64,000 bases of DNA from Chlorella sorokiniana (taxonomy: Eukaryota > Chlorophyta > Trebouxiophyceae > Chlorellales > Chlorellaceae), in the NCBI GenBank assembly GCA_025917655.1, contig CP084614.1, forward strand, positions 806,001 through 870,000, in the 5' to 3' direction. The position numbers and the translations under genes are program-made. Below, one piece after another: positions 1,726-55,800 of the stretch (the stretch's first letter is position 1; the number at the start of each line of letters is the position of its first letter). The notes below the pieces were generated by a model. That model was not told where the DNA came from, did no database searches, and saw only the letters and a program-made list of their open reading frames with translations.

Positions 1726-4700
1726 CTACACGCCGCCGCCGCCGCCGCTGCTGTGCTTGCCAGCTCCTCCGCCTTGCTGCCGCGACGCAGCGGAAGCAGC
1801 TGCGGCTGCTGCTGCGGCCACTGCATTGGCATGCTGCCGCACATCAAAATCCAGCCCAGCTGGCAGCGCACCGCTGCTGAAGGGGCTCACCAGCGGCACA
1901 GCACCAGCGGCAGGTGCGGCAACCGAGGTAGGCGCAGGCCCTGGGGCCTGGTCGGCAAAGGGAGAGAGCGCCGTGGGTGCCACCGCCGCGCCGGCAAAGG
2001 GCGACTGCGGCACCTGAGCCCCTGGGTGGGCGCCGCCGCCTGGCCCCCGCTGGGCAGATGGGCGCTCATGCTGGAGCGCACCGCCACCGCCGAGGGCTGG
2101 ATGCTGCGCGCGCGCTGCGTCCGGTCGTCGGTGGCGGCAGCCTCAGAGCGCTGCAGGACAGGCGGTGAAACACACATGGGGGCTGGAATCGCACAAAAGA
2201 GTGGCAACAAGCCAACCAGCGGCAGCTCCGCTTCCCTTGCCTCCTCCTGCAACGAGGGGGCAGGGCAGGGCGGCAGCCGCCCAGCCCTCGCTGCGGCCGC
2301 CCACCTCCGACAGCTGCGCCTCAGCCTCCACCTCCGCCTGGGTCATGGGCGACAGGTCCACAATGACGACTGTCACGTTGTCGCGGCTGCCGCGGTCCAC
2401 AGCCGCACGCGTCAGCACCGTGGCGGCCACGCGCGCCGCGCTCTGCAGCAGCAGGACAGGAGGGCAGCAGCGCACGTGAGGAGAGGGTCAGCAGCTGCAA
2501 ACCTTGAGATGCTGCAGCCACGACAGCAGTGCAGCATGCAGCGCTGCGGAGCAGCACTGCAGGCATGGGCAGCAGCGGGGGAGGCGTGGGTGGCGTGGCT
2601 GCAGCACGGCGGCGCACCTGGCGCGTGGAGCCCCGCGAGCGCGCCCTGCCCAAGCACTTCTTGGCCAGCGTGACCGCCTCCTGGTTGCTCATCACGTCCC
2701 ACAGGCCGTCTGAAGCCATGACCAGCACCTCGTCGCTGGGGTGGCGCGCGAGGATGGTCACCTGCAGGCAGCAGGAGCCAGCAAGGCTGGGAGGCCGGCA
2801 GCACGCGCTGGCAGCGCTGGCAGTGCAAGCGCCCAGAGGAAGGCAGGCCAGCGGGCACACCAAGCGCGCGCATGGCGCCAATCCCTGCAGGAGAGCCCTC
2901 GCATCCCTGATGCTCAGCTCCACCCGCCCACCTCGGGCTCCGCAATGACGTACGGCCGCAGCGAGTGGTCGCCAATGGCGCGCGACACCGCCAGCAGGCC
3001 CATCACGCGAACGCCATTCCAAAAAAGAATCTGGCCGCCGGCAGCCTCCACGCGCGCCTGCCAACCATGAAAAAGAGAGGACCAGGTTGCTTTCAAGGGG
3101 TCAGGTGCCCAGCCCAGGCCTGCTGCATGGCCAGCTCCGCCGCGGCGCCGACTCGTGCCCGCCATCCTGCCGCAAGGGCGCCCTCGGCTCAAAGGCGCCC
3201 TCAGCACGCCCCCACCCACCGTCTCGTCCTCCCGGGCCGCCTTGTGGTCATCGGTGAGGGGCAGCGCGCCGCCCGACCGGCACAGCACGGCGCGCGAGTC
3301 GCCGCAGTTGGCCACGTAAATCATGCGGGAGCCCACCAGGGCCACCACGGCGGTGGTGCCCACCAGCGCCAGGTGCTCGTAGCCGCCCAGGTTGCCAAAC
3401 TCCTCGTCTGCGGTGGGACAGGGGACAGGGCACCCAGCATCAGAGCAGTGCTGCAATCACATTGCGCTGTGAACACACTGGGCACAAAGGTGTCCCCGTG
3501 CCCAGGACGGGACTGGCCCCGCTCAGCCGCACCGCGGCAGGAGCAGCACACCCTGCTCACCCGTAACATGGAACGCCTTGGTCAGCGCCGCCTCTATTGT
3601 TTCCGCTGTGCAGGGGGCCGTGCATGCTGGAGCTGGTGTGGCCGGGGGACTCGCCCTCAAAGTCGGCGTCTAGATAGCTGTTGGCGCTGTTGCTGCTGCT
3701 GCACCCCGAGGCCTTGGAGGCGGTGGCTGCTGCAGGAGGGGCGAGCACCAGGGCGTAGGGCAAGGTGCAAGCTGGGTTGCCAAACAGTCATGACAGGGCA
3801 AACCGCCCGCAACACAGCTGGCATGCGCGGGGCATGGTGCTGCCGGAATCCGCTGCGTGCCACACAGGCCAGCCCTTCCCATGCAGCCAGCAACCAACCT
3901 GCATCGTGGCAGTCGGTGCGTCCGCTGCCAGCAGTGGGCGGCCGTGGCGACGCAGCCTCGTCAGCGCTGCCGGTGGAGGCCTGCGTGCCGGGCTGCCCTG
4001 CCTGGTGCGTGGCCGACTCGTCTCGGTCCTTGTCACGCAGGGCTGCCAGGTTCCCTGACAGGGAGGCACGCACGCTGACAGCACATCACGCACGCGCTCA
4101 TGCAGGCACTTGGCGCAGTGTAGCGCCGCGTCGGCCCCGCCGTGGCCGTCAAACACGCCAAAGAAGTGGAGCGTCTCAGTTGCGAGCGCCGCTGCTAATG
4201 CGCCGCTGCCTGCAGCATCCATCGCCATGGCACCTGAGCCAGGCTCTCTGCTGTGCTGCTGCTGCTGCCGCCGCCCGCTGCTGCCAAAGGCCGCCCCGCT
4301 GCCGCTGCTATCGCCGCTCGCCGCCATGGCGGTCTGCTGAGAGTGTGCCGAAGATCCGGCGCCGCTGCCGGTGCGTAGCTGCGGCGCTATCCTGGGGGCA
4401 GCAACTCATCCATGCCACCATGGCTGACAGGCACCTCCACCAGGTACGGCACTGCTACGCACGCGTCCTCCATCTTAGCACGCCGCCCAATCACCGACTT
4501 GCTGCCGAACGGCGGGCAGGCGTGTGCCAAGGCCTGGCTTGGCTGCGCCTGTTGCTGTCCATGCTGCTGGTGTTCTTGTGACTGCTGCTGCTGCACTGCG
4601 GCTGCAGACGCAGCCTGCGAGCTGTCGGAACGCATGTGCGTGGCTTGGAACTCTACGGCTGGAGTGGGAGCGGCTCCTGCGGGGCCTGCTGCAGTGTGCA

Positions 4701-54100: not shown

Positions 54101-55800
54101 CCCCGGCCCGCAGGCACGGGCAAGACGCTGCTGGCCAAAGCCGTGGCCACCGAGTGCGCCACCTCCTTCCTGTCGGTGAAGGGCCCCGAGCTCATCAACC
54201 AGTACGTGGGGGAGAGCGAGAGGCAGATACGAGAGGTGGGGCGCGCACCGGGAGGGGGGCATGCGGCGGCGGCAGCCTGCGGCTGGGGCAACAATGGGCG
54301 GCTTTCTTGCTTTGGGAGGAAGGGCAACGCCGCACAGCGGTCGACTGACCACCCTGCCTCGCCAGGCCGTTTGTTTGCGCTGCGTTGGCTGCGCCGGCCG
54401 ACCGCCAACGCGTGGCGCCGCCGGCGCGCAGGTGTTTGCGCGCGCGCGCCGCGCCCGCCCCTGCGTCGTCTTCTTCGACGAGCTCGACTCGCTGGCCCCC
54501 GCCCGCGGCCGCGGCTCCGACTCGGGCGGCGTCATGGATCGCCTCGTGTCGCAGCTGCTGGCGGAGATCGACGGAGTGCAGGTGTGTGGGGGGGGACGCT
54601 TTTGTCAGGTTGTGTTCCCGTGGTTCTGTGTTTCTGAGCAGGAGGGTGGAGGAGCAGTGAAGAGGGACCGGGACAGGCAGGCTGGCAGGCATTTTTGAGA
54701 CCTGCACCCCGCCGCCACGCGCCTTCATCAGCCTGCCCACCCTCCGCACCACTGCCCTGTGCCGCCTCCCTGGGTTCCTCCCTTCCCGCAGGGCTCGGGC
54801 GCCTCTGGCGACGTGTTTGTGGTGGGGGCCACCAACCGCCCGACCTGCTGGACCCCGCGCTGCTGCGCCCGGGACGCCTCGACCGCCTGCTCTACGTGGG
54901 AATTGCGGGTGGGCGGCGGCGCGCGCCTGGGCGGCGGCGTGCATGACTGATGTGCCCCTGCGGACGCTGCCTGGCGGCGGGCAATGCCAGTCTGTCGCTG
55001 CAGCCGCTGGCCGCCAGATTTGGCTGGGGATGAGAAGGGGGCCTGGGGAGAGGGGGTTCTTGCCCAAGGGGAGGGCGGCTCTGTGGCCCGACGTCCCAAC
55101 ACTGATCCCCACCCGTCCCCCTCCACCGATGCGCGCGCCTGCCTGCAGCCGACGTGCCCTCCCGGCTGCAGGTGCTGCAGGCGCTGACGCGTAGGTTCAA
55201 CCTGGCCCCGGGGTGGATCTGGGGGAGGTGGCGGCGCGCTGTGCAGACAGGTATGTGTGTGTACGTGTGTGGAGGGGGAAGCGCAGGGGGCCTGCCTGCC
55301 TGGCAGCGTGGTAACTGGTAACTACTCTGCTGGGCACCTGTCGGAAAGCTGTGTTTGTTGTTGTCCGCCTGCCCTGAGTCGCGCCATACTGATTGCCCTC
55401 TATGCTTGGATGGCAACATTCCTTGGGCGGTCTCCTCGAGCGCTGGCACAGCCCCCACCGACTGGATGCACCCACCCCACACCCCGCAGGTTCACCGGCG
55501 CCGACCTTTATGCTCTGTGCGCCGACGCATGGATGACCGCCCTCAAGCGCTCCATCGCCCACCTGGAGCGGCAGCAGCAGCAACCGGAGCAGCAGCAGCA
55601 GGAGGCCTCGGGAGGCAGCAGCAGGCGACGACCGCGGCTGGGACGGGGACCCTGGCGGCGGCGGCGAGGGCGAGGAGGAGGAGGTCGTCGTGACGCAGGA
55701 GGACCTGCTGGCGGCGGCGGCCAGCCTGCAGCCGTCGCTCAGCGCCGAGGAGGTGGCGCGGTACGAGCGCATTCGAGACCAGTACAACAGCAAGGGCTAG
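51105..55800 (+). CDS. PEX6: PEX6, AAA+ ATPase of the peroxisomal export complex
   Basis: With PEX1 it extracts ubiquitinated PEX5 from the peroxisome membrane for recycling. The ATG at 51105 starts [19 protein letters not shown], and a weakly conserved N-terminal domain follows. The D1 ATPase has GPPGSGKR (52738-52760, slip at 52743-52747) and ALLLLEDV (about 52905-52930, slip at 52906-52908). D2 begins [19 protein letters not shown] (53649-53706) and has [16 protein letters not shown], a Walker A split by an intron (53921-54130), [40 protein letters not shown] (54472-54531), [16 protein letters not shown] and [19 protein letters not shown]. The protein ends [20 protein letters not shown] at the TAG at 55800, the usual PEX6 tail. 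[10 protein letters not shown] and the tail separate it from PEX1 and CDC48. There are about seven introns in the D2 half. Confidence 0.93.

What the first reader, a model, noticed from the sequence alone, without database searches (positions are those of the whole stretch)
1726..55800. Conserved frames slip by one base at C or G runs across many genes
In at least eleven places a conserved motif can be read only if one C or G is added to a nearby run. PP2C: 2019-2022 and 4983-4985. CLASP-like: 6931-6933. RRM protein: 12534-12537. Helicase Walker A: 35951-35955, also 37416-37418 and 37446-37449. PEX6: 52743-52747, 52906-52908, 53927-53930 and 54839-54841. A further change sits at the run of seven at 31721-31727 in the MYND gene. 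These are mostly essential genes, the reading resumes perfectly after the run, and the direction is nearly always one base short. That pattern fits homopolymer under-calling in the assembly, not pseudogenes or frameshifting. Automatic gene models here will contain false introns and truncated proteins.
Basis: partly seen in the sequence, partly recalled or inferred. Interest (0 to 1): 0.7.

Follow-up and report, generated by a model that had tools for sequence, protein, structure and literature searches.

The report
Assembly errors at C/G runs
Many genes in this alga's genome assembly look broken because stretches of repeated C or G were recorded one or two bases too short, which is a known kind of sequencing error and not biology.

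Summary
Of the 12 listed runs, 9 are supported by conserved sequence or splice joins on both sides; a codon-usage frame model found 5 of these blindly. Three (2019, 4983, 31721) have no conserved anchor.

Over 264 kb the frame model finds 93 frame switches in 59.1 kb of coding sequence (1.57/kb), against 0.05/kb inside genes of a bacterial control. The rate rises with C/G run length: 0.15% at 2, 3.4% at 4, 14% at 5, 30% at 6. At ATPase GPPG motifs, 20 of 22 with a C run of 4 or more are out of frame, against 0 of 11 with shorter runs. The same 22 bases are in frame in one gene and one short in another, so no local recoding signal explains them.

Corrections: often two bases are missing, one site may carry an extra base, and some runs of 5-6 are right. 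Best explanation: wrong C/G run lengths in a long-read assembly. The platform is inferred; no reads or transcripts were available. A known artefact, of low interest.

The parts
6931..6933 (+). CCC, one C short; CLASP-like TOG domain, ...SFAAFP|ELLLGLRD...
   Evidence: HMM switch at 6932; joining the two frames raises CLASP_N from 24.0 bits (right part) and none (left part) to 39.2 bits
12534..12537 (-). CCCC on + (GGGG in the gene), one short; ...VQGIPSG|ADRLWLYENFSRYGAV...
   Evidence: HMM switch at 12535; frames read
12901..12903 (-). additional site, CCC on + (GGG in the gene), one short, inside an RRM
   Evidence: HMM switch at 12898; joined halves RRM_1 32.6 bits against 14.7 and 15.9 apart
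35774..35778 (+). additional site, GGGGG one short, helicase gene
   Evidence: HMM switch at 35775; read
35951..35955 (+). CCCCC, one short, helicase Walker A (LWQGPP|GTGKT)
   Evidence: joined piece AAA_11 57.0 bits, left ORF alone 35.8 bits
36414..36418 (+). additional site, GGGGG one short, helicase (VRG|ELRHACLEA)
   Evidence: read, coordinates; not an HMM event
36662..36665 (+). additional site, CCCC one short, helicase
   Evidence: HMM switch at 36658; read
37416..37418 (+). CCC (or its neighbour), one short, helicase ...HPAIAAFPS|RFYAARLRSG
   Evidence: read; joined exons AAA_12 105 bits; not an HMM event
37446..37449 (+). GGGG, one short, at an exon end; the intron starts inside the run (GTGGGC) and the next exon reads GVPWPNPACPVLFCNVE
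   Evidence: read; depends on the inferred splice sites; not an HMM event
52743..52747 (+). CCCCC, one short, PEX6-like D1 Walker A (LLHGPP|GSGKR)
   Evidence: HMM switch at 52737; read
52906..52908 (+). CCC, one short, PEX6-like D1 Walker B region ([15 protein letters not shown])
   Evidence: HMM switch at 52907; read
53282..53284 (+). additional site, CCC, two short or one extra base, PEX6-like
   Evidence: HMM +1 switch at 53275; read
53461..53465 (+). additional site, CCCCC one short, PEX6-like
   Evidence: HMM -1 switch at 53459
53544..53548 (+). additional site, CCCCC, two short or one extra base, PEX6-like
   Evidence: HMM +1 switch at 53533
53927..53930 (+). CCCC, one short, PEX6-like D2 Walker A, split by an intron right after the motif's first half
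   Evidence: read; donor and acceptor located; joined D2 gives AAA 153.9 bits; not an HMM event
   Evidence: read; coordinates; splice sites inferred, no transcript
54839..54841 (+). CCC, one short, PEX6-like D2 ([21 protein letters not shown])
   Evidence: read; within the joined D2; not an HMM event
55210..55213 (+). additional site, GGGG one short, PEX6-like ([11 protein letters not shown])
   Evidence: read, coordinates; not an HMM event
2019..2022 (-). listed site, unsupported: tail beyond the PP2C blocks
   Evidence: read; no HMM event
4983..4985 (-). listed site, unsupported: upstream of the first PP2C block
   Evidence: read; no HMM event
31721..31727 (-). listed site, unsupported: possible frame change, no domain recognised beside it
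   Evidence: read; no HMM event

Best explanation
The assembly records C and G runs in nuclear genes with the wrong length, mostly one or two bases short and more often the longer the run. The real genes are intact; each wrong run shifts the reading frame in the assembled sequence. Shown: the frame breaks, their dependence on run length, and their spread over the genome. Inferred: that the error arose in base calling and consensus building from long reads with too little correction. An Oxford Nanopore-type assembly is the likeliest source, but the platform was not tested.
For: Per-run frame-switch rate in coding sequence: 0 of 20,652 (length 1), 11 of 7,421 (2), 22 of 1,617 (3), 15 of 436 (4), 30 of 210 (5), 10 of 33 (6), 3 of 6 (7), 2 of 3 (8) (each switch is assigned to the longest run within 12 nt). 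A C/G run of 5 or more lies within 12 nt of 40 of 93 switches against 8.5% of coding positions; displaced switches give 16 of 93 (+60 nt), 12 of 84 (+90), 7 of 66 (+150) and 9 of 84 (-90). The A/T side shows no excess. Bacterial GC-rich control, same HMM with its own codon model: 4 switches in 80.9 kb lie more than 60 nt from an annotated gene end (0.049/kb; 33 more lie at gene ends), against 93 in 59.1 kb (1.57/kb) in the alga. With codon counts taken from C1, C3 and C5 only, the window gives 25-51 switches depending on the penalty; 43-52% lie near a C/G run of 5 or more against 10% expected. Walker A, whole genome: 33 GPPG sites whose upstream frame could be read; C run of 4 or more: 20 of 22 out of frame; run of 3 or less: 0 of 11. 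The identical 22-mer GGCCCCCGGGCACCGGCAAGAC is in frame at C10:578559 and one short at C10:1332043. Joining the frames restores domains. Precedent: MinION-only assemblies of Chlorella variabilis were lower in GC than the reference and lost nearly all core genes (PMC6154909, passages); deletions tied to homopolymers of 2-8, most at 4-5 (PMC12007338, passages); homopolymer errors shifting frames in nanopore assemblies (PMC7500977, passages).
Against: No reads, transcripts or close relative were available. The drop in run counts from 5 to 6 is weak support, because the bacterial control drops as steeply and a codon-shuffled expectation gives 41 runs of 6 against 33 observed. Some long runs are right: GGGGGG at 53668-53673, a CCCCCC Walker A (L064), a CCCCC Walker A (L048) and a CCCC in a GPSG variant (L077) keep their frames. 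Introns of the window hold C/G runs of 8, so there is no hard cap. Of the 93 switches 36 have no C/G run above 3 within 12 nt, so short runs or misplaced calls account for many. Organelle contigs hold A/T runs up to 20 without a drop at 5. In HSP70 and Cpn60 genes (57 and 55 matches) I saw, by eye, only one pair of abutting out-of-frame matches. A test on non-translated RNA failed: the 18S searches errored or found nothing.
Confidence: 0.95

Rival explanations
1. The first reader mistook introns for frameshifts.
For: The genes are intron-rich. Two listed sites (37446, 53927) adjoin introns. At five Walker A sites an adjoining intron may hide the upstream frame, so they could not be scored (L020, L043, L047, L067, L075).
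Against: At most supported sites both frames abut with no room for an intron (for example 6931, 52906, 54839; GVLLxGP directly beside GTGKT). The HMM has a non-coding state for introns. At 53927 and 37446 the splice join itself is out of frame by one.
Confidence: 0.02
2. The DNA is right and the cell restores the frame, by ribosomal frameshifting, polymerase slippage or RNA insertion at C/G runs.
For: Runs of one base are the usual place for slippage (general knowledge). The reading does resume correctly after the supported runs.
Against: The same 22 bases need 0 added bases in one gene and 1 in another; GGCCCCCGGC needs 2 at nine sites while a C6 and a C5 elsewhere need none. A local signal cannot decide this. 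A break about every 0.6 kb of coding sequence, each needing exact correction, is unlike any recoding system I know of (recalled).
Confidence: 0.01
3. The genes are decaying pseudogenes or the region is non-functional.
For: Many frame breaks per gene, for example at least eight in the PEX6-like gene.
Against: The breaks hit conserved genes on many contigs (FtsH-, NSF-, RFC-, UPF1-, TRIP13- and PEX1-like; names from motifs I recognised) and concentrate at C/G runs, and the codons between them keep strong bias (GC3 0.92) and conserved motifs.
Confidence: 0.01
4. The same artefact from another machine: low-coverage consensus or failed short-read polishing of PacBio continuous long reads in very GC-rich DNA, rather than nanopore. 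This is a variant of the best explanation, so its odds overlap with it.
For: Errors also occur at runs of 3-4, and one site looks like an extra base. Organelle contigs have long A/T runs, as if they had been corrected separately.
Against: Nothing tested here separates the platforms.
Confidence: 0.3

Closest known systems
Homopolymer indel errors in uncorrected long-read assemblies (MinION-only Chlorella variabilis assemblies, PMC6154909)
   Same: GC-rich green alga; long-read-only assemblies are shorter and lower in GC than the reference and broken in gene models; core gene recovery 1.3% unpolished and 10.9% polished for the ABruijn assembly (passages)
   Different: I could not identify this assembly's species, reads or polishing
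Gene-fragmenting errors profiled by Kastor (PMC12007338) and in Drechmeria nanopore genomes (PMC7500977)
   Same: deletions at runs of 2-8 in one of Kastor's test assemblies; frames shift and resume (passages)
   Different: the Drechmeria paper reports more over-long than short runs after polishing; here the excess is of short runs
Programmed ribosomal frameshifting
   Same: a one-base shift at a run of identical bases
   Different: no consistent site or direction, identical sites behave differently, and many breaks occur per gene

Membership tests
Assembly homopolymer length error | Error rate rises with run length | tested here: met
   0 of 20,652 at length 1 to 2 of 3 at length 8
Assembly homopolymer length error | Spread over unrelated genes and the whole genome, both strands | tested here: met
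   broken Walker A sites on many nuclear contigs, both strands; HMM switches in window, C1 and C5 samples; 0 in the C3 sample, which has only 283 nt called coding
Assembly homopolymer length error | Missing bases dominate | tested here: met
   64 '-1' against 29 '+1' switches; '+1' can be two missing bases (Walker A) or one extra
Assembly homopolymer length error | Also hits DNA that is not translated | tested here: inconclusive
   non-coding C/G runs also drop from 5 to 6 (661 to 79), but a bacterial control drops too; 18S could not be found
Assembly homopolymer length error | Accurate reads show longer runs | not testable with these tools
   no reads available
Programmed ribosomal frameshifting or RNA editing | A recognisable local signal decides the shift | tested here: not met
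   identical 22-mer in frame in one gene, one short in another
Programmed ribosomal frameshifting or RNA editing | Protein or transcript shows the shifted product while the DNA is confirmed | not testable with these tools
   no transcripts or peptides

The most novel reading that the evidence does not exclude
The assembled run lengths are right, and this alga corrects frames at very many C/G runs by adding one or two C or G residues to transcripts with information not held at the site itself.
Probability: 0.005. Interest if true: 0.95.

Novelty: not a real feature. Interest (0 to 1): 0.1.

Why it matters
Only in practice: gene models, intron counts and 'pseudogene' calls from this assembly cannot be trusted in GC-rich genes, and any later finding here that rests on a frameshift, a truncated protein or a short intron should first be checked for a C/G run. 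The Walker A test (does a run-bearing GPPG motif keep its frame?) is a quick quality check for other GC-rich assemblies.

Tried and rejected
Run-length spectrum as proof: rejected as weak. The fall from runs of 5 to runs of 6 first looked decisive, but the bacterial control falls as steeply (34 to 2 and 48 to 4) and a codon-shuffled expectation for the alga gives 165 and 41 against 210 and 33 observed. What remains is a modest excess at 5.

CpG at the run edge as the cause: no effect at runs of 4-6 (28 of 316 against 27 of 363, Fisher p 0.57). At runs of 3 the CpG-edged ones switch more often (15 of 695 against 7 of 922); I did not test this further.

An empty answer shows nothing there.

Searching single pieces of the helicase and PEX6-like genes against solved structures gave nothing at E 1e-5; the joined D2 domain did. 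Naming the species: a search for '38.8 Mb' with alga, genome and nanopore gave no paper; the two Chlorella papers looked at do not match in genome size (passages).

Walker A rows not counted. The first pattern gave 31 distinct sites: 22 were scored, 3 had an adjoining intron that may hide the frame (L020, L043, L047), and 6 were set aside (three GPSG/GPAG variants, one other motif at C10:1658625, the chloroplast contig, and C6:860105, which is the PEX6 intron acceptor). The second pattern had 114 matches, not all listed, many of them the first set again. From the listing I chose by eye 7 new ones with a C5 or C6: 6 out of frame, 1 in frame; L061 is out of frame but how many bases are missing is unclear. 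In a recheck I fetched 15 more: of five GPPG sites of full length without a run of 4, four are in frame (L072, L073, L074, L076) and one is unreadable (L075); choosing full-length ones favours intact sites. Of seven 22-base matches with short runs, four are in frame because they are other motifs (L065, L066, L068, L070), one is unreadable (L067) and two are chance (L069, L071). Of the three variants set aside, L077 (GPSG, C4) and L078 (GPAG) are in frame and L079 (GPAG, C4) is out of frame, apparently at a CCC about 12 nt upstream of the motif. These variants are not in the 33.
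Full report
Setting. The window is contig C6:806001-870000 of a 38.8 Mb genome in 15 contigs for which the tool holds no relatives. C14 (77,013 bp) and C15 (117,793 bp) look like organelle genomes: they hold 44 of the 63 listed tRNAs and their 20-kb samples are 33-34% GC. The window is 68.9% GC. With PP2C, CLASP-like and PEX6-like genes, many introns and what looks like a chloroplast contig, this is most likely a green alga (inference). 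The species was not identified.

The listed sites. I translated all frames at the 12 runs and read the genes around them. Nine of 12 hold. CLASP-like 6931...SFAAFP|ELLLGLRD. RRM protein 12534 (minus strand)...IPSG|ADRLWLYENF. Helicase 35951: LWQGPP|GTGKT; 37416: HPAIAAFPS|RFYAARLRSG; 37446...RLRSG, then an intron, then GVPWPNPACPVLF. PEX6-like 52743: LLHGPP|GSGKR; 52906: [12 protein letters not shown]; 53927: LLYGPP, then an intron, then [12 protein letters not shown]; 54839: [21 protein letters not shown]. Three of 12 are not supported: the PP2C gene lies on the minus strand with recognisable blocks (recalled motifs) between about 4500 and 2264, and 4983 and 2019 lie outside them; the MYND site 31721 has no domain that I recognised beside it.

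Joining the frames restores domains. CLASP_N rises to 39.2 bits from 24.0 (right piece) and none (left piece). An RRM split at 12901 rises to 32.6 bits from 14.7 and 15.9. The helicase pieces give AAA_11 57.0 (left ORF alone 35.8) and AAA_12 105. The PEX6-like D2 gives AAA 153.9 bits, and against solved structures it hits p97/Cdc48 chains best and, last of the 60 shown, a PEX6 chain at 265.6 bits. In D2 I also chose the frame that fits near GGLRARSG, so that join is partly my reading.

A frame model without homology. I trained a codon model by iteration on window, C1, C3 and C5 samples (264 kb), starting from 671 seed codons of the helicase and PEX6-like genes. GC at third codon positions is 0.92, so frames separate well. 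A seven-state HMM (six frames and non-coding).1 kb coding and 93 direct frame switches: 46 in the window, 28 in C1, 19 in C5, and 0 in C3, where only 283 nt were called coding. Directions are 64 '-1' (one missing) and 29 '+1' (two missing or one extra). The HMM found 5 of the 12 listed sites. The same HMM with codon counts from annotated genes, on 100 kb of a Methylosinus plasmid (63% GC), gives 37 switches, 33 of them within 60 nt of an annotated gene end, as expected where genes abut; the other 4 in 80.9 kb include one inside an IS3-family transposase, where frameshifting is known (recalled). The control is less GC-biased (GC3 0.76) and has no introns, so it is a rough yardstick.

Dependence on run length. 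Assigning each switch to the longest C/G run within 12 nt: 0 of 20,652 runs of 1; 11 of 7,421 of 2; 22 of 1,617 of 3; 15 of 436 of 4; 30 of 210 of 5; 10 of 33 of 6; 3 of 6 of 7; 2 of 3 of 8. Choosing the longest run favours long runs, so the fair comparisons are with random coding positions (enrichment 4.1, 8.9 and 15.4 at runs of 5, 6 and 7 or more) and with displaced switches: runs of 5 or more fall from 40 of 93 to 16 of 93, 12 of 84, 7 of 66 and 9 of 84, and runs of 6 or more from 13 to 0-4. A second method, comparing flanking frames at every run, rises from a background of about 9% to 14, 18 and 27% at runs of 3, 4 and 5 and 5 of 6 at runs of 6 (60-nt flanks). No A/T run of 4 or more lies at a switch, but such runs are rare in this coding DNA.

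Walker A as a genome-wide test. The motif GPPG[T/S/C]GK[T/S] can be written with C runs of 2 to 7. Two whole-genome pattern searches and small stretches around sites gave 33 GPPG sites whose upstream frame can be read (PKGVLL, RGVLL, LIQ, LLFY and the like). With an observed C run of 4 or more, 20 of 22 are out of frame; with 3 or less, 0 of 11. For the 22 sites of the first pattern, which were not selected by outcome, this is 14 of 15 against 0 of 7 (Fisher p 4.7e-5). Of the 20 broken sites 9 have five Cs where the motif needs seven, 7 have five where it needs six, 2 have four for five, 1 has six for seven and 1 is unclear; these implied lengths assume that the missing base is a C. The two intact exceptions are a C5 (C10:578559) and a C6 (C2:3169001). 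The same 22-mer, GGCCCCCGGGCACCGGCAAGAC, is in frame at C10:578559 and one short at C10:1332043. Of seven readable sites of other variants, six are in frame and one is not.

Counter-evidence and limits. The run spectrum is weak evidence (see tried and rejected). Coding and intronic runs of 6 to 8 do exist, so there is no hard cap; a slight second peak at 8 is unexplained. Of the 93 switches 36 have no C/G run above 3 nearby; errors at runs of 3 are seen directly at 6931, 52906 and 54839, but some calls may be misplaced or false. HSP70 and Cpn60 genes show few breaks by eye; one HSP70 gene on C3 has a G run one short in DLGGGTFD and, before it, a G run with one base too many or two too few. Organelle A/T runs reach 20 without a drop at 5, which fits separate or better correction of those contigs but does not show it. 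No untranslated control could be made.

Mechanism. Most likely, long reads gave too few C or G signals at runs, and the consensus kept the shorter length. Shown here: the breaks, their dose-response on C/G run length, and their inconsistency at identical sequences. Inferred: base calling as the source and nanopore as the platform. Published cases fit: MinION assemblies of Chlorella variabilis (ABruijn, unpolished and polished) had 64.4 and 65.8% GC against 67.1% for the reference, and 1.3 and 10.9% core genes against 82.9% (PMC6154909, passages); Kastor's authors found deletions tied to runs of 2-8, most at 4-5 (PMC12007338, passages); Drechmeria nanopore genomes had frame-shifting homopolymer errors, although polishing there made runs too long more often (PMC7500977, passages).

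Verdict. It is a known artefact, not a feature of the organism.

Noticed in passing
L019-L023 (C3:2000001-2050000): A 50-kb stretch at 55-57.5% GC, while the other samples are about 63-72% GC; the GC-rich codon model calls only 283 nt coding there although an RFC-like AAA gene is present at C3:2010627. It could be a low-GC outlier region such as those reported in other green algae (recalled).
   Followed up: no
36141-36158, 37534-37561, 41354-41380: (GT)n runs that end in a G run of 6 to 13; the first two lie inside introns of the helicase gene, and the second overlaps short weak hits elsewhere in the genome (for example L004, L007, L008). C runs followed by (AC)n appear as well.
   Followed up: no
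window and samples: C/G run counts show a small second peak at length 8 in non-coding DNA (20 runs of 7, 27 of 8, 6 of 9).
   Followed up: no
L055 (C3:1270400-1271150): An HSP70 gene with two frame problems, one of which looks like an extra G rather than missing bases.
   Followed up: partly
L079 (C13:971440-971580): A dynein-like GPAGTGKT site whose frame breaks at a CCC about 12 nt upstream of the motif, another break at a short run.
   Followed up: partly
53933-54113: An intron splits the D2 Walker A motif of the PEX6-like gene; its acceptor (GGCCCGCAG|GCACGGGCAAGAC) mimics a GPAGTGKT motif and rang in the Walker A pattern search.
   Followed up: yes
   Followed up: partly
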